Virus record (IMG/VR): IMGVR_UViG_3300046837_000115
Coordinates: 1 to 56,031 of that record
Direction: 5' to 3' (one strand)
DNA length: 56,031 nt
DNA from: a virus
The translations under genes were made by a program, and so were the position numbers. Position 1 is the first letter of the stretch. Each line of letters starts with the position of its first letter. The notes under the pieces were generated by a model. That model had not been told where the DNA came from, ran no database searches, and worked only from the letters and a program-made list of their open reading frames with translations. Below, one piece after another: positions 44,598 to 51,376 of the stretch.

Positions 44598-45161
44598 ATG
44601 CGGGCAGGTATCACGCTGGTGTGCGCCCTCGCCATGTGTTCGTTGGCGGGGCCAGGTGAAGCGCAGACCATGAAACCACCGAGCAGGGCGCCGCATTCCG
44701 CGGCGTTCTACACGAACACGGTGCCGCGTCATTCGGCCCGGTATCTGACCGCGGCCAAGCTCGCTCGCGGGCTGCGCGGGCTGTGCTCTCGTGGCTCTGG
44801 GGGGTGTGCTCTGGCCGGTCAGGCGTTTGTGATCGAGCAGGCCGGTTGGGAGACGCATACGTCGCCGGGCGCGATGGTCGGCGCCAGCTTCACGGAGAGC
44901 AGCGGGGGTGACGCTGCTTGTGGTGGGAACCCGAAGAACATCTGGGGGTTGTCGTCGTGCGGATCAGGCTGGTACGTGCCTTACTTCCGCACGTGGCATC
45001 AAGCGTTCGTGTTCTTCGCCCGGTTTCTGCACCGTCAATGGCCGGGCGCCAGAACCGTCTACGATTTCCCTGGCTATTCCGCGTGTGATTCGTGCTGGGG
45101 GCCGAGAACAGCACTATGGGCGTCGCGTCTCGGATTCGGCCCGGGGCTGCGGTACCCGTGA
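44598..45161 (+). CDS. secreted lysozyme-like protein
   Basis: 187 residues. ATG 44598 is chosen over ATG 44586 because GGAGG lies at 44588-44592. The first 24 residues form a signal peptide (MRAGITLVCALAMCSLAGPGEAQ). The mature part has GASFTESSGG with E100 and NPKNIWGLSSCG, the pattern of lysozyme-fold muramidase/glucosaminidase proteins, and conserved Cys pairs. It is far from the lysis cassette and would use the host Sec pathway, so it may weaken the wall from outside, act in exclusion, or aid virion release. Confidence 0.7.
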   Translation: MRAGITLVCALAMCSLAGPGEAQTMKPPSRAPHSAAFYTNTVPRHSARYLTAAKLARGLRGLCSRGSGGCALAGQAFVIEQAGWETHTSPGAMVGASFTESSGGDAACGGNPKNIWGLSSCGSGWYVPYFRTWHQAFVFFARFLHRQWPGARTVYDFPGYSACDSCWGPRTALWASRLGFGPGLRYP

Positions 45162-45198
45162 CGTGCTCGGCCTGCCGCCGGTTCCGTCCCTGCCTCCG

Positions 45199-47553
45199 AT
45201 GCCTCGGGCTGCTGCCGTGATCTACCTGGCGGACCCGGACGTGACGATCCACCAGGGCGACGCCCTGGATGTGCTGGCCGCGATGCCGGACGGGTCGGTG
45301 CATTGTTGCGTGACGTCTCCGCCGTACTGGGGTTTGCGTGATTACGGGACGGGAGCGTGGGAGGGCGGCGACGAAGGCTGCGACCACGCGAAGCCAACGA
45401 CGACCTACAACCACGGCTTTAACGAGCGGTGGGGCCAGGGCGGCGGACAGCTGAAGCAGGAGAAGAAGTCGGAGGGCCAGTACGCGCAGGAGTGCCCGAA
45501 GTGCGGCGCCCGCCGTGTCGACCAACAACTCGGCCTCGAGGCCACCCCGGACGAGTACGTGGCCCGGATGGTCGAAGTGTTCCGCGAGGTGCGCCGCGTG
45601 CTGCGGGCGGACGGGACGTTGTGGCTCAACATCGGCGACAGTTACGCGCAGGGGCCATCCGGCAGCCCAGGCCCGACAGGTTTAGAGGGCCGGTCGCAGG
45701 ATTCGACACGCGTGCACGTCTCGAAACTTGGAAATGGGCTCAAGCAGAAGGATCTCGTCGGCATCCCCTGGCGGCTCGCGTTCGCCCTCCAGGCAGACGG
45801 CTGGTATTTGCGCTCGGACATCATCTGGGCGAAACCGAACCCGATGCCCGAGAGCGTGACGGACAGGCCGACCAAAGCCCATGAGTACGTGTTCCTACTC
45901 AGCAAGTCGCCGCGGTACTTCTTTGACGCTGATGCCATTCGTGAGCCGCACAAAGAACCCTGGCGCGGACAGGGCGAGGCGGAGAAGAACAACTGGTCGG
46001 TAAATGGCGAAAGGGGCAGCCACGACACCGTGCGCCAGTACAACCCTGCTGGCCGCAACGTCCGTTCAGTGTGGGAGATAGAGCAGACGGGCCGCGAGCG
46101 AGGCGGTACCAAGCACACGCTCATCGAGGACTACTTCAACGACATCTACACCGAGGAGCAGGCGTACTGGCTCGGCTTCCTCTACGCAGACGGCTACCTC
46201 GGACGCCGACACGTCGATCTACAACTCGCAGCGAAGGACGCGGGACACGTTGAGCGGTTCCAGCGTGCTCTCGGTTCAAGTCGTGAGGTCACGATCTCGA
46301 GAGATGGCAGGGCGCGCTTTATCGCCTCATCGCTTCGGATGGCGAATGATCTCGGCCATCTTGGGATGCGCGAGCGCAGCACCATGCCGATCCTCAATGG
46401 CGAACTGACCCGGCACTTTGTCCGCGGCGTGTTCGATGGCGACGGCAGCGCATGGAGCTACCTGCCCGCCGGACGAACCAAGAGACGCTACGGCGCCGCG
46501 TTCCTCGGCAGCCAAGGCCTCCTCGATGAGATCCGGGAAGAACTCGGCCTGCGCGGCAAGCCCAAGTTTTCGCGTGGGATTCATCGCCTGTCGGTTGCTG
46601 CAGGAGATGATATTGCTCGCCTCTACGCCTATCTCTACGACGGGGCCACGGTGTGGCTCGAGCGGAAGCGTGTCGAGTTCCCACAGGCGCAGAGCATCGC
46701 GCCGGCCACATGGAGCATCGCCACACAGCCGTACCCGGAGGCGCATTTCGCCACGTTCCCGGAGGAACTCGTCAGGCGGTGCGTGCTGGCGGGTTGCCCT
46801 GAGTTTGTCTGCAGCGAGTGTTATACTCCGTGTGTAAATGCCGAAGCCACCGAGTCTGATTCCGTACAAGCGGCACTGCAACGTATGCGGCCGGTACTAC
46901 GAGGGTCGGGGAAAGATGTTTTGCAGCCGGTCTTGTCAGACGATTGCGGCAAACCGAGCGCGCGGGAAGAAGCAGCGCCCGCCGTGCCGGAACTGTGGGA
47001 AGCCCGTCAAGACGATGAGGCACAAGACTTGTTCGACCAAGTGCGCCGGCCAGTGGGCAACCAAGACGGGGGCGAATCGTCACCCATTCCCGCCCGAGCG
47101 CCGAGCGGCGAACTGGAAGGGCGGCAGGGTGATCGACGTGAGCGGCTACGTGCGGGTCTACAGTCGCCAGAAGCGTCGATACCTGCTCGAACACCGAGTG
47201 GTGATGGAGCAGAGGCTAGGGCGGTCGCTGACGCGGGGCGAGTTCGTCCATCATCGCAACGGGATCAAGACGGACAACCGGCCCGAGAACTTGGAGCTGA
47301 TGACGCGGAATCCGCATCGGGGAACGGTGGAGTGTCCCCACTGCGGCGAGCGGTTCGCGATTCGCTGAGCCCCTGCTGTGGCGCGCCGCTGAGCCCAGGG
47401 ATCGTCCTAGACCCGTTCATCGGCAGTGGCACCACCGGCCTGGTAGCACGCAAACACGGCCGCCACGCGATCGGCATCGAGCTGAACGCCGACTACTGCG
47501 AGTTGGCGTCGAGACGGTTGGCGCAACAGTCGCTGTTGACGGAGCTGGCGTGA
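45199..47553 (+). CDS. N4/N6 DNA methyltransferase interrupted by two endonuclease insertions
   Basis: The methyltransferase halves are clear: IHQGDALDVLAAMPDG, catalytic motif TSPPYWGLRDYG (S40-Y43 when counted from ATG 45199) and, at the far end, DPFIGSGTTGLVARKHGRHAIGIELN. GTG 45163 and GTG 45217 are alternative starts. Between 46075 and 46713 an in-frame LAGLIDADG domain interrupts W-x-I-ATQPYPEAHF, a segment conserved in this family. Further on, an HNH gene (46838-47368) lies in another frame between two Cys pairs (CSEC, CCGAP). The host frame stays open through both inserts (784 codons). Whether the product is one long protein, is spliced, or is inactive cannot be decided by eye. Confidence 0.75.
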   Translation: MPRAAAVIYLADPDVTIHQGDALDVLAAMPDGSVHCCVTSPPYWGLRDYGTGAWEGGDEGCDHAKPTTTYNHGFNERWGQGGGQLKQEKKSEGQYAQECPKCGARRVDQQLGLEATPDEYVARMVEVFREVRRVLRADGTLWLNIGDSYAQGPSGSPGPTGLEGRSQDSTRVHVSKLGNGLKQKDLVGIPWRLAFALQADGWYLRSDIIWAKPNPMPESVTDRPTKAHEYVFLLSKSPRYFFDADAIREPHKEPWRGQGEAEKNNWSVNGERGSHDTVRQYNPAGRNVRSVWEIEQTGRERGGTKHTLIEDYFNDIYTEEQAYWLGFLYADGYLGRRHVDLQLAAKDAGHVERFQRALGSSREVTISRDGRARFIASSLRMANDLGHLGMRERSTMPILNGELTRHFVRGVFDGDGSAWSYLPAGRTKRRYGAAFLGSQGLLDEIREELGLRGKPKFSRGIHRLSVAAGDDIARLYAYLYDGATVWLERKRVEFPQAQSIAPATWSIATQPYPEAHFATFPEELVRRCVLAGCPEFVCSECYTPCVNAEATESDSVQAALQRMRPVLRGSGKDVLQPVLSDDCGKPSAREEAAPAVPELWEARQDDEAQDLFDQVRRPVGNQDGGESSPIPARAPSGELEGRQGDRRERLRAGLQSPEASIPARTPSGDGAEARAVADAGRVRPSSQRDQDGQPARELGADDAESASGNGGVSPLRRAVRDSLSPCCGAPLSPGIVLDPFIGSGTTGLVARKHGRHAIGIELNADYCELASRRLAQQSLLTELA
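46075..46713 (+). mobile_element. in-frame LAGLIDADG homing-endonuclease insert in the methyltransferase
   Basis: About 213 codons inserted at a W-E-I/W-S-I duplication: TGG at 46072 and TGG at 46711 are 639 bases apart. The insert holds two LAGLIDADG motifs (AYWLGFLYADG and FVRGVFDGDG), so it can act as a monomer. The ends lack an intein Cys/Ser start and a His-Asn ending, and there is no splicing domain of about 130 residues. It is therefore not a standard intein. It could be a group I intron with an in-frame ORF or a rare direct protein insertion. Boundaries are uncertain by a few codons. Confidence 0.7.
46838..47368 (+). CDS. HNH homing endonuclease nested in the methyltransferase gene
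   Basis: 176 residues, ATG 46838, in a different frame from the methyltransferase. The N-terminal half has Cys-pair motifs (CNVCGRYY, CSRSCQ, CRNCGKP, CSTKC), the next part is SGYVRVYSRQKRRYLLEHRVVMEQRLGRSLTRGEFVHHRNG and KTDNRPENLELMTR, the HNH nuclease pattern (HH, N, E). It ends with a Zn-type CPHCGERF. The start follows TATACT (46822-46827) by 10 bases but there is no good -35 box or ribosome site. Second mobile gene in the same host gene. Confidence 0.8.
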   Translation: MPKPPSLIPYKRHCNVCGRYYEGRGKMFCSRSCQTIAANRARGKKQRPPCRNCGKPVKTMRHKTCSTKCAGQWATKTGANRHPFPPERRAANWKGGRVIDVSGYVRVYSRQKRRYLLEHRVVMEQRLGRSLTRGEFVHHRNGIKTDNRPENLELMTRNPHRGTVECPHCGERFAIR

Positions 47554-47783
47554 GTCATCACCCGGACGGCTGGATCTGCGCCCGAGGCCACTGGGTCCCG
47601 CCCGGCGTCACTCACTGCACCGCCTGCCGGTGGCGCACCGAGCGTGACTCGTGTGATTGCGGCGGGTTGAAGTGGAAGACGTCGACCAGGTGCCGGGATT
47701 GCGACACGGACCGGAAGCGGGCGGCACCCGTGCCCCGATCTCCGGTGGCGCGTGTGACCTCTACCCAGAAGGAGGAGTTGTGA
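47550..47783 (+). CDS. Cys-rich zinc-ribbon-like protein
   Basis: 77 residues, GTG 47550 overlapping the methyltransferase stop. CARGH, CTAC, CDCGG and CRDC provide four Cys clusters, as in double zinc ribbons. The tail is basic and ends with a GGAGG in its coding sequence that serves the next gene. Probably nucleic-acid or protein binding; no exact family. Confidence 0.55.
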   Translation: MSHHPDGWICARGHWVPPGVTHCTACRWRTERDSCDCGGLKWKTSTRCRDCDTDRKRAAPVPRSPVARVTSTQKEEL

Positions 47784-48577
47784 CGGTAACTCTTGACGCG
47801 ACCCGTGACCTGATCGCGGGCATGAACGCGCAGAGCGCGCGTTGGCTGGTGGACTACTACTACGCGGTGCAGGACTTCCGCATCCAGGCGCAGGGGCAGC
47901 TGCGCGCGATCGTGCAAGAGGCCGACGAAGGAACATTCCTGATCGGCGAGCAGCTCCTCGACGACACGTCTGAGATCGAAAAGAGAATCAGGAAGGCGCT
48001 GGACAAGTACACGGATGAGGTGGTACCGACGGTGTGGGCGAAGTCGATCCACGGCATCGGGCCTGTCCTCGCAGCCGGTCTCGCGGCCCATATCGACATC
48101 GAGAAGGCACCGACGGTCGGCCATATCTGGCGGTTCGCCGGGCTCGACCCGACGGTGAAGTGGGGGAAGGGCGAGAAGAGGCCGTGGAACGCGTCGCTGA
48201 AGGTGCTGTGCTGGAAGATCGGCGACTCCTTCGTGAAGGTCAGCGGGAAAGACACCGACGTGTACGGGAAGGTTTATCGGGCCAGGAAGGAGCAGGAGAT
48301 ACGGAAGAACGAGGCAGGCGACTTCGCCGACCAGGCCGCGGCCGCCCTCGCCGAACGGAAGTTCAAAGTGTCCGATACCCGCAAGGCGTACGAGGCAGGT
48401 CGGCTACCGGACGGCAGGATCGACCTGCGCGCCCGCCGGTACGCCGTCAAGCTGTTCCTCGCCCACTACCACCACGTCGCATACGAGGATCACTACGGCG
48501 AACCCCCGCCGAAACCGTACGCCCTCACCCACCTCGACCACGCCCACTTCATCGCACCACCAAACTGGCCGCTGTAG
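47780..48577 (+). CDS. IS110-transposase-related helix-hairpin-helix protein
   Basis: 265 residues, GTG 47780 preceded by GGAGGAG and overlapping the previous stop. The region from residue 88 (KSIHGIGPVLAAGLAAHIDI ... GHIWRFAGLDPTVKW ... RPWNASLKVLCWKIGDSF) matches the C-terminal helix-hairpin-helix domain of IS110/IS116 transposases. The N-terminal DEDD catalytic domain of those enzymes is absent. Phages carry such standalone versions; the function is not known. It ends the operon immediately before the repeat array. Confidence 0.7.
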   Translation: MTVTLDATRDLIAGMNAQSARWLVDYYYAVQDFRIQAQGQLRAIVQEADEGTFLIGEQLLDDTSEIEKRIRKALDKYTDEVVPTVWAKSIHGIGPVLAAGLAAHIDIEKAPTVGHIWRFAGLDPTVKWGKGEKRPWNASLKVLCWKIGDSFVKVSGKDTDVYGKVYRARKEQEIRKNEAGDFADQAAAALAERKFKVSDTRKAYEAGRLPDGRIDLRARRYAVKLFLAHYHHVAYEDHYGEPPPKPYALTHLDHAHFIAPPNWPL

Positions 48578-48588
48578 CCGTGAAAGTG

Positions 48589-49119
48589 GAGGGCACCGAG
48601 AAGAGAGAGCGAGCCGTCCTCAACGAGAGTGCCGTAGCTCGCGAGCGAGCCACCATAGGCGAGGGCACCGTCCCAGGTGAGCGAGCCGTGGTGTCTGAGA
48701 GCACCGTATGGAGCGAGCGAGCCGTCGTTCAGGAGAGCACCGCCCCTGAAGAGCGAGCCGTCACCGCCGATAGCACCGTGCTTCGTGAGCGAGCCGTGAT
48801 CGAAGAGGTAACCGACGATCCCGAGCGAGCCGCCCGTAGGGAGAGTGCCATCGCCACCGAGCGAGCCGTAGAGGGTGAGGGCGCCATTCGCCTAGAGCGA
48901 GTCGAAGTAGTCGAGAGCACCGACGCCTACGAGCGAGCCGAGGCCGTTGAGGGCACCCAGACGCAGGAGCGAGCCGCTAGGCGGGAGAGCACCGATAGGA
49001 GCGAGCGAGCCGCTGATACAGAGAGCACCGTCGACGATGATCGAGCCACCAACCCTGAAAGCACCTCACCCCTGGAGCGAGCCGAGCTGGTCGAGGGTAC
49101 CGAAGATGCTGAGCGCCCA
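48589..49119. repeat. array of two alternating 9-bp boxes at exact 18-bp spacing
   Basis: Box A (GAGCGAGCC, near invariant) and box B (GAGRGYRCC) alternate strictly. B starts at 48589, A at 48607, B at 48625 and so on to B at 49093 and a decayed A at 49111: 29 boxes, no indel. The 9-bp stretches between boxes are all different. In the rightward frame from GTG 48580 the array encodes ERA-xxx-E[SG][TA]-xxx and has no stop until 49465. In the leftward frame it encodes GSL-xxx-GAL-xxx but has two stops and no start codon. Box A shows no synonymous change (CGA every time), which points to a nucleotide-level role. It fills the 614-base gap between two convergent genes. Function unknown. Confidence 0.85.
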
Positions 49120-49128
49120 GAAACACGA

Positions 49129-49146
49129 ACGGCCCCGAAGGGCCGT
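49129..49146 (-). terminator. hairpin terminator for the leftward zinc-ribbon gene
   Basis: Seven-pair stem ACGGCCC/GGGCCGT closed by a stable TTCG-type loop on the leftward strand, followed by TCGTGTTTCT. It lies 46 bases beyond the stop of the leftward gene and just before the repeat array. Confidence 0.55.
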
Positions 49147-49191
49147 CCGGTCGCAACCCCGGCCCGGAGGCGAGGCTGTCGAGGTCCCGCT

Positions 49192-49398
49192 CTAGGCGGG
49201 GGTCACGTCTTCGACGTGTGTGACGCTCAGCGCTCGGCAGGAGCCGTCGCAGTAGACCGTCTCGCCCATCGGGTCGAACGGTCCGGATGGGTGGCCTTCG
49301 CACTCGGGCGCGAAGTTCACCGGCAGGCCGCAGCGCCGACAACCAGCGTCGACCTCAATGTCCATGACGGGCGTCTCGCAGTTGCAGTAAAGGGTCAT
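49192..49398 (-). CDS. leftward zinc-ribbon protein
   Basis: 68 residues, ATG ending at 49398, behind a strong AAGGAGG. CNC, CRRCG, CEGH and CDGSC provide at least six metal-binding residues (MTLYCNCETP ... GCRRCGLPV). The third leftward gene of ordinary type in the window, after the membrane protein and the HTH gene. Divergent from the replication-initiator-like gene with 65 bases between them, in which I see no clear promoter. Role unknown; a regulator of the replication region is possible. Confidence 0.65.
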   Translation of the reverse strand: MTLYCNCETPVMDIEVDAGCRRCGLPVNFAPECEGHPSGPFDPMGETVYCDGSCRALSVTHVEDVTPA

Positions 49399-49463: not shown

Positions 49464-50024
49464 GTGAGCCCATGGCTACGCGTAGACGACGGCTTCACCG
49501 GCAACCGCAAAATCCTCGCGCTCGGCACCGACCAACGACGCTGGACATGGATGCGAATCCTCTGCTACGCCGCCCACCAATCCAGCCCAGAAATCCCCCA
49601 CCACATCGGCCACGAAATCAACGGAGCCACCCCCAAATACATCGCAGACCTCCTCGAAATCGGCCTCCTCGACGAAGACGGCCCACACAACTACGTCATC
49701 CACGACTGGGACGACTACAACCCCAAAGACCCCACCAACCCCATGCGCCAAGCCCGCTACCGACAACGCCAACGTAACGCACAAAGTAACGCCACCAGTA
49801 ACGCCGAAGTAACGCACACCGTAACGCCACCCGTAACAGACGAAACCGTTACCGAAGTAACGCCCCACGCGCTGGCACGCGCGCGCGTTCCCACCCCACC
49901 CCAAACAACAAGACCCTTAGAGAGAGATGTATCTGTGGGTTCAAACGTAACTGGGGGCAACGGCCGCAAAGTCAAACCCCCAGACTTGAAAACAGTCGAC
50001 CAGCAGATCGGAGGCGCAGCGTGA
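49464..50024 (+). CDS. replication-initiator-like protein carrying iterons
   Basis: 186 residues, GTG 49464. The N-terminal 95 residues (WLRVDDGFTGNRKILALGTDQRRWTWMRILCYAAH ... YIADLLEIGLLDEDG ... VIHDWDDYNPKDPT) match the winged-helix N-terminal domain of phage replication proteins of high-GC hosts. The second half is a low-complexity linker (NAQSNATSNAEVTHTVTPPVTDETVTEVTP) that holds DNA repeats. Composition is C- and A-rich with many GAA/AAC/CAC codons, unlike neighbours that prefer GAG. A six-codon frame (MADGVK, 49447-49467) ends in a GTGA overlap with its start. Confidence 0.65.
   Translation: MSPWLRVDDGFTGNRKILALGTDQRRWTWMRILCYAAHQSSPEIPHHIGHEINGATPKYIADLLEIGLLDEDGPHNYVIHDWDDYNPKDPTNPMRQARYRQRQRNAQSNATSNAEVTHTVTPPVTDETVTEVTPHALARARVPTPPQTTRPLERDVSVGSNVTGGNGRKVKPPDLKTVDQQIGGAA
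49774..49951 (+). repeat. GTAAC(GC) iterons inside the initiator-like gene (candidate origin)
   Basis: GTAAC occurs at 49774, 49786, 49798, 49809, 49821, 49833, 49857 and 49947, with a GTTAC at 49848; most are GTAACGC. Spacings are 12, 12, 11, 12, 12, then looser. The change from 12 to 11 moves the repeat into another codon phase, so the DNA, not the protein, is conserved. Iterons inside the initiator gene are the arrangement known for phage lambda O. Confidence 0.65.
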
Positions 50025-50466: not shown

Positions 50467-50675
50467 CCGGCCTCGACGACATCCGGCGGCGGCTCGAAGG
50501 AACACCCGCGCTCCGCGCGTTCCCAGACATCCTCGCCGACGTGGAGCGGCTACTCGCCATCGCAGAAGCGGCGAGCAACCTTTACGACTGCGCTACCGTC
50601 AGCGACTTCCTGATCGGCGCCTGGCACGCGCTTGATGAGGCATTAGTCGCCCTCGACGCGGAGGAACTCGCGTGA
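50463..50675 (+). CDS. small helical hypothetical protein
   Basis: 70 residues, GTG 50463. Predicted all-helical and acidic (IRRRLEGTPALRAFPDILADVERLLAIAEAASNLYD). No motif. Translationally coupled to the zinc-finger gene before and to the radical SAM gene after it. Confidence 0.5.
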   Translation: MTGLDDIRRRLEGTPALRAFPDILADVERLLAIAEAASNLYDCATVSDFLIGAWHALDEALVALDAEELA

Positions 50676-51376
50676 AGTACCCACGCCCGCTGACCCGGAT
50701 CCAGCAGATCGAGCCGACGACGTTCTGCGATCTCCGCTGCCACTACTGCCCGTCCAAGGACCTGGTTCGTATCCGGAATCAGGAGCGGATGCACATGACC
50801 TTGGACACGTTCGGCCGGTCGCTTGAGTGGTGCCAGCACTTTGCACGGAAGGGCACCCAGGCCGACCTCAGCCTCACCGGCATCGGGGAGACGCTACTCC
50901 ACCCCGACGTGCTGCAGCTCGCCGTCATGGCCCGCGAGATGCTGCCGTACACGCCGATCAACTTCTCCACGAACGGGCTGAAGCTCACCGACGAGCTGTG
51001 CGCCCACTTTCGCGACCACAAGATCATGTTGTTCATCTCGCCGCACCGGCCTGAGAAGGCCGCGTGGGCGTCAGAGCGGGCCGCGAAGTACGGGATCCTG
51101 ATCGGCAACAACTTCGGTGCGAGCGTCTCCAGCTTCGACTGGGCCGGTGTCGTCAAGCACCCCGTCATGGCACCACGCACCGTGTGCGAGTGGTTGCGTG
51201 ACGGGTGGGGGAACGTCCTCGTCGACGGCCGCATGACCACGTGCTGCCTCGACAGTCCTGCGCTCGGGGTGGTCGGGTCTGTCTGGGACGACATCGGGTC
51301 GCTCGCCACCCGACCGTTCAAGCTCTGCGACACCTGCCACATGGTGCCGCCCGCCGAAACGAAGGAGGCCGCTTGA
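50672..51376 (+). CDS. radical SAM enzyme
   Basis: 234 residues, GTG 50672. The cluster-binding motif C19-x3-C23-x2-C26 (CDLRCHYC) is followed by the usual barrel elements (LSLTGIGETLLHP, INFSTNGLKL, IMLFISPHR). Near the end, MTTCCLD and CDTCHMVP look like extra cluster ligands as in SPASM-type enzymes. These use SAM radicals to modify peptides or nucleotides. Substrate unknown; it is too short for a full SPASM enzyme and differs from queuosine-pathway QueE. A base or protein modification role is possible. Confidence 0.75.
   Translation: MKYPRPLTRIQQIEPTTFCDLRCHYCPSKDLVRIRNQERMHMTLDTFGRSLEWCQHFARKGTQADLSLTGIGETLLHPDVLQLAVMAREMLPYTPINFSTNGLKLTDELCAHFRDHKIMLFISPHRPEKAAWASERAAKYGILIGNNFGASVSSFDWAGVVKHPVMAPRTVCEWLRDGWGNVLVDGRMTTCCLDSPALGVVGSVWDDIGSLATRPFKLCDTCHMVPPAETKEAA

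What the first reader, a model, noticed from the sequence alone, without database searches (positions are those of the whole stretch)
48589..49119. Strict 18-bp array of two alternating boxes with variable 9-bp spacers
29 boxes, A (GAGCGAGCC) and B (GAGRGYRCC) in perfect ABAB order, no indel in 530 bp, and all spacers different. Box A has no synonymous variation in either strand frame, so selection seems to act on DNA or RNA. Rightward it could encode a hexapeptide-repeat protein (ERAxxxESTxxx). Leftward it reads GSLxxxGALxxx with two stops and no start; box B variation falls largely on leftward third codon positions, as in a decayed gene. Possible roles: protein-binding array (partition, replication, packaging), structured RNA, or a repeat protein.
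Basis: partly seen in the sequence, partly recalled or inferred. Interest (0 to 1): 0.85.

Follow-up and report, generated by a model that had tools for sequence, protein, structure and literature searches.

The report
Phage TIGR guide-RNA array beside TasA
The repeats are a phage-borne set of 15 short dual guide RNAs next to the gene for their carrier protein, a member of the TIGR-Tas family of RNA-guided DNA-binding systems described in 2025; what its guides target is unknown.

Summary
In detail: 29 nine-base boxes, strictly alternating, exact 18-bp period, with 30 different spacers. It is a dual-repeat TIGR array (Tandem Interspaced Guide RNA). Box A is the edge repeat and box B the loop repeat; with a truncated edge repeat at each end it encodes 15 guides of 36 nt. 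Directly upstream, on the same strand, lies the tas gene (47780-48577, 265 aa); its stop codon falls inside the 5' truncated edge repeat. The protein matches NCBIfam NF052498 "TIGR-Tas" (E 4e-58), and its predicted fold matches solved TasH and TasR (Z 20 and 19). It starts where their Nop domains start, so it lacks a nuclease: a TasA. The same repeats occur in at least 120 viral-contig stretches; arrays adjacent to tas were always on its strand. Where tas is 93.5% identical the guides can be entirely different; where guides are shared, whole edge-A-loop-B cassettes are shared, often reordered. It is not a gene, not a decayed gene and not unusually structured RNA. Own-genome targets were not found. 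New member of a known kind; the cassette turnover bears on an open question.

The parts
47770..47775 (+). Shine-Dalgarno-like AGGAGG of the tas gene
   Evidence: sequence read directly
47780..48577 (+). tasA gene, GTG start (inferred), 265 aa, Nop-domain TIGR-associated protein without nuclease domain
   Evidence: NCBIfam NF052498 TIGR_Tas_endo E 4.1e-58, 197 bits over cut-off 100; PDB sequence hits TasR 9mty 1e-16 and TasH 21kl 3e-10; AF2 pLDDT 90.8, VIA Z 20.1 TasH, 18.9 TasR, 13.6 IS621
48571..48579 (+). 5' truncated edge repeat GCTGTAGCC; contains the tas stop codon TAG (48575-48577)
   Evidence: sequence; same arrangement GACTAAGCC in L122
48571..49119 (+). TIGR array: 15 guide units of 36 bp (spacer A, loop repeat, spacer B, edge repeat); 15 loop repeats, 14 full and 2 truncated edge repeats
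48580..48606 (+). first guide: spacer A GTGAAAGTG, loop GAGGGCACC, spacer B GAGAAGAGA; 14 more follow at +36 each
49111..49119 (+). 3' truncated edge repeat GAGCGCCCA (GAGCG retained)
49126..49149 (.). G+C-rich hairpin directly after the array; T-rich tail only on the - strand, so a convincing intrinsic terminator for leftward transcription and only a possible stop for the array transcript
49192..49398 (-). convergent small gene (about 68 aa, Cys-rich, no family), not part of the system
   Evidence: sequence with SD GGAGG; no Pfam, PHROG or NCBIfam hit; promoter-like TTGACA-17-TACACT at 49463-49435

Best explanation
It is a TIGR-TasA system of a tailed phage. Shown here: a Nop-fold Tas gene followed on the same strand by a dual-repeat array that starts in a truncated edge repeat overlapping the tas stop codon, holds 15 spacer pairs and ends in a truncated edge repeat. 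Inferred from the characterised relatives (Faure et al. 2025, PMC12045711): the array is transcribed with tas; a host RNase cuts in the edge repeats in a TasA-dependent way; each 36-nt tigRNA sits across a TasA dimer through the GAG...CC motifs shared by edge and loop repeats; spacer A pairs with one strand and spacer B with the other strand of an about 18-bp target, which is opened and bent but, without a nuclease, not cut. The most likely use (inference, about 60%) is to silence or handicap other mobile DNA in the host (competing phages, prophages or plasmids). Guides are gained, lost and moved as whole 36-bp cassettes.
For: Family model and fold. Array anatomy equals the published definition (8-12-nt alternating repeats, 9-nt spacers, truncated edges, up- and/or downstream of tas). 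Recurrence: at least 120 stretches in IMG/VR with this repeat pair, 4 in 84,980 species genomes; 83 loci with a Tas relative; 59 with an array within 100 nt downstream and 46 with one upstream, all on the strand of tas. Non-coding. Spacers unconstrained between relatives, boxes fixed. Cassette as unit: of 49 distinct shared A spacers 34 keep their own B partner and only 8 the B spacer across the edge repeat. No nuclease: alignment starts at residue 112 of TasR and 64 of TasH, after their N-terminal nuclease domains.
Against: No RNA-seq, so transcription and processing are inferred. No target was found, so the DNA-binding role and the anti-competitor role rest on the family. The hairpin after the array lacks a T-tract on the array strand. 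The NCBIfam model name says endonuclease, but no nuclease domain is seen in this protein.
Confidence: 0.96

Rival explanations
1. Still TIGR-TasA, but the guides act on the phage's own genome, as a guide-RNA repressor or DNA-bending aid (for example for integration or replication).
For: TasA lacks a nuclease, so self-binding would not be suicidal; the locus lies next to a replication-initiator-like gene.
Against: No guide matches the window itself better than chance: best 2 mismatches, once. Guides do not match their own loci above expectation, and true spacer pairs match no more often than shuffled pairs. Guides are replaced completely between phages with 93.5% identical tas, which fits poorly with a housekeeping role. 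Most other contigs were only partly searched.
Confidence: 0.08
2. A DNA site array (iterons, parS-like or packaging sites) bound by a protein in double-stranded form.
For: Strict periodicity; multiple arrays per genome.
Against: Same strand as tas in all 105 adjacencies, starting at the tas stop codon; spacers are inherited in pairs across the loop box but not across the edge box; the protein next door belongs to the tigRNA carrier family.
Confidence: 0.02
3. A repeat protein or its decayed gene (ERAxxxESTxxx rightward or GSLxxxGALxxx leftward).
For: The rightward frame is open through the array to 49467.
Against: That frame has 3 and 1 stops in the two 29-box relatives, the leftward frame 2 and 4; spacer identity between relatives is at chance level; over 132 arrays stops occur in every frame; the open frame runs on through the hairpin and antisense to the convergent gene.
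Confidence: 0.01

Closest known systems
TIGR-TasA systems (FpTIGR of Flavonifractor plautii as example; Faure et al. 2025, PMC12045711)
   Same: Solo Nop-domain protein, dual-repeat array with 9-nt spacers and 36-bp period, truncated edge repeats at both ends; phage setting is typical of the family
   Different: Repeat sequences GAGCGAGCC / GAGRGYRCC; 15 guides; not tested experimentally. Whether this very repeat pair is in the paper's supplement could not be checked
TasH of Salicola phage CGphi29 (PDB 21kl, 9vzx, 9w03, 9w04)
   Same: Nop fold, VIA Z 20.1; the only relative found among 50,697 phage records
   Different: TasH carries an N-terminal HNH nuclease; the window protein begins after that point
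TasR (PDB 9mty)
   Same: Nop fold, Z 18.9, 32% identity over 193 residues
   Different: TasR carries an N-terminal RuvC nuclease
IS110-family RNA-guided transposases (IS621, PDB 8wt6)
   Same: Shared Nop-like RNA-binding domain, Z 13.6; hence the 'transposase' label in PHROGs and Pfam
   Different: No DEDD domain and an array of many guides instead of a single bridge RNA; NCBIfam IS110 model far below its cut-off (25 vs 140 bits)
CRISPR arrays
   Same: Repeats separated by unique spacers
   Different: Two alternating short repeats, 9-nt spacers, no sign of addition at one end

Membership tests
TIGR-Tas (dual-repeat type) | Adjacent gene for a Nop-domain Tas protein | tested here: met
   NF052498 E 4.1e-58 over curated cut-off; fold matches TasH/TasR
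TIGR-Tas (dual-repeat type) | Two alternating 8-12-nt repeats separated by about 9-nt unique spacers | tested here: met
   29 strictly alternating boxes, 30 unique spacers
TIGR-Tas (dual-repeat type) | 5' truncated and 3' truncated edge repeats at the ends | tested here: met
   GCTGTAGCC 48571-48579 and GAGCGCCCA 49111-49119
TIGR-Tas (dual-repeat type) | Rho-independent terminator after the array | tested here: inconclusive
   Hairpin 49126-49149 is there, but its T-rich tail is on the other strand
TIGR-Tas (dual-repeat type) | Edge and loop repeats share the motifs at their ends (box D-like and box C-like) | tested here: met
   Both repeats are GAG...CC followed by a purine (28 of 30 spacers)
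TIGR-Tas (dual-repeat type) | Processing into 36-nt tigRNAs bound by Tas | not testable with these tools
   No RNA data
TIGR-Tas (dual-repeat type) | Spacers A and B direct binding to opposite strands of a DNA target | not testable with these tools
   Needs biochemistry; target searches found nothing above shuffled pairs or above chance
TasA subtype | Nop domain alone, no HNH or RuvC domain | tested here: met
   265 aa; structural alignment begins at TasR residue 112 and TasH residue 64; no nuclease-domain hit by Pfam above cut-off
IS110 transposase | DEDD (RuvC-like) catalytic domain plus serine Tnp domain | tested here: not met
   NCBIfam IS110 model 25 bits against cut-off 140, only residues 57-126; no N-terminal domain in 265 aa
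CRISPR array | One repeat type of about 25-36 nt | tested here: not met
   Two 9-nt repeats alternating

The most novel reading that the evidence does not exclude
In phages, TIGR guide arrays turn over by exchange, insertion, duplication and reordering of whole 36-bp guide cassettes at internal positions, without CRISPR-like end polarity and without any adaptation gene, so fast that phages with almost the same tas gene carry entirely different guides; TasA is then a fixed carrier in an inter-phage contest in which the guides are the changing part.
Probability: 0.55. Interest if true: 0.65.

Novelty: new member of a known kind. Interest (0 to 1): 0.42.

Why it matters
TIGR-Tas was described in 2025 and its natural role, targets and the way its arrays grow are open. 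This locus adds a clean TasA example in a tailed-phage contig with terminase, portal and capsid genes. The set of more than 100 viral stretches with the same repeat pair gives material to study turnover: shared guides travel as complete edge-A-loop-B cassettes, which also shows from sequence alone which repeat is edge and which is loop.

Tried and rejected
Coding in any frame: rejected. Structured RNA or known RNA family: fold z 0.15, no Rfam match. Targets: 1946 spacer pairs against 1.1 Mb of array-bearing loci in both possible geometries with gaps of 0-2, with shuffled-pair controls: no excess; 15 window guides against the window and its capsid relatives: no excess. Two recurrent guides against all viral contigs: one gave no hit; the other gave 4 hits in unrelated genes, judged chance. 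Array length as a conserved ruler: the window, L122 and L123 all have 29 boxes, but other relatives differ (16/36, 22/14, 8/52), so probably coincidence. Arrays in relatives found by capsid gene: none in the five contig fragments. First window guide repeat unit as exact pattern in other contigs: none. Literature on the box sequence itself: only unrelated sequence matches. A parB-like partner of TasA, reported for some loci: not seen among the neighbouring genes tested.

Full report
Observation. The array is there as described: 29 boxes at 48589-49101, strictly alternating, 18-bp period without a single indel. Box A is GAGCGAGCC in 12 of 14 copies; box B has eight variants of GAGRGYRCC; all 30 spacers differ. 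Shuffled windows give runs of 2-3 boxes at most. A partial box stands at each end: GCTGTAGCC (48571-48579) and GAGCGCCCA (49111-49119).

Recurrence. In those arrays spacers are mostly 9 nt, occasionally 8 or 10, and stop codons occur in all six frames. So the array is not a gene, and the open rightward frame in the window is incidental.

Neighbouring gene. The gene just upstream on the same strand was labelled 'transposase' by PHROGs and has a weak Transposase_20 match. Its likely start is GTG 47780 behind AGGAGG, giving 265 aa. NCBIfam NF052498, 'TIGR-Tas system RNA-guided endonuclease', matches with E 4.1e-58 and 197 bits over a cut-off of 100; the IS110 model stays far below its cut-off. 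By sequence the closest solved structures are TasR (9mty) and TasH (21kl). The AlphaFold2 model (pLDDT 90.8, pTM 0.88) aligns to TasH at Z 20.1, TasR at 18.9 and IS621 at 13.6, and then Z drops to about 9-10; Foldseek agrees. The alignment starts at residue 112 of TasR and 64 of TasH, beyond their nuclease domains, so this is the nuclease-free TasA type.

Association. Of 83 loci with a Tas relative, 59 have an array within 100 nt downstream and 46 one upstream; in every case it lies on the strand of tas. In the window and in L122-L124 the first full box begins 11-12 nt after the stop codon, because the stop codon lies inside the 5' truncated edge repeat (window and L122).

Comparison with the description. 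Faure et al. (PMC12045711) define TIGR arrays as alternating 8-12-nt edge and loop repeats with 9-nt spacers, a 5' truncated edge repeat at the start and a 3' truncated one at the end followed by a terminator, up- or downstream of a Nop-domain tas gene, processed into 36-nt RNAs whose two spacers pair with opposite DNA strands. All sequence features are met except the terminator, where the hairpin 49126-49149 has its T-rich tail on the other strand. Box A is therefore the edge and box B the loop repeat, and the array holds 15 guides.

Array evolution. Between the window and L122/L123 boxes are about 85-87% identical and spacers 22-25%, i.e. chance. L122 and L123 have tas genes 93.5% identical and the same box count, but no spacer identical in place and one shared elsewhere. 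Other related pairs share some guides. Among 174 non-redundant arrays, 49 distinct A spacers are shared exactly and can be judged on both sides; 34 keep their own B partner, only 8 the B spacer on the other side of the edge repeat, and 15 have neither, about the number of chance 9-mer coincidences I would expect (a count with redundant pairs gave 49 and 10 of 51). Shared guides occur at internal positions, and in five of six informative pairs in changed order or with a duplicate. The 36-bp cassette edge-A-loop-B is thus the unit of inheritance, with no sign of addition at one end. This is my own inference from a modest sample.

Targets. True spacer pairs match the 1.1 Mb of array-bearing loci no more often than shuffled pairs in either geometry. 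The 15 window guides find nothing beyond chance in the window or in capsid relatives. Scans of all viral contigs with two recurrent guides gave none and four unrelated hits. With 16-18 informative bases per guide, and without the co-sampled competitors, this cannot exclude targets in trans. Spacers (positions 4-9) are lower in G+C than their own loci (0.52 vs 0.61, lower in 88 of 97 loci), compatible with an origin outside the own genome or with selection for unpaired RNA.

Setting. The contig is a tailed phage with terminase, portal, capsid, protease, tape measure, RecT, SbcCD and several DNA methyltransferase genes. The phage collection holds only one Tas relative by this search, Salicola phage CGphi29, the source of the published TasH.

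Conclusion. A TIGR-TasA locus: known kind, new member. Identity is well established by sequence and predicted fold; transcription, processing, DNA binding and the role against other mobile DNA are inferred from the family.

Noticed in passing
window 44908-47553 (+), residues about 393-600 of the frame: A DNA methyltransferase frame is interrupted in frame by a homing-endonuclease-like stretch (phrog_4645...AYWLGFLYADGYLGRR...), with methylase parts on both sides, like an intein or another in-frame mobile insertion; no Rfam intron match.
   Followed up: partly
window 50672-51376 (+): Radical SAM protein with a weak match to prokaryotic viperin models (PADLOC pVip, E 7e-8) but also to QueE-like families; identity left open.
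   Followed up: partly
window 49765-49837 (+): A second, short repeat (about 11-12 bp, AACGCC...AGT) inside the replication-initiator-like gene 49464-50024; could be iterons of an origin inside the initiator gene.
   Followed up: no
L005, L016, L116 (array regions): Internal duplications of whole guide units within one genome, e.g. taacggaga/aaaaaacaa twice in L116.
   Followed up: partly
97 array-bearing loci: Spacers are consistently poorer in G+C than the phage that carries them (0.52 vs 0.61).
   Followed up: partly
L129, L130, L133: Three short contigs of other samples carry a capsid protein 100% identical to the window's, so this virus population recurs; none holds the array.
   Followed up: partly
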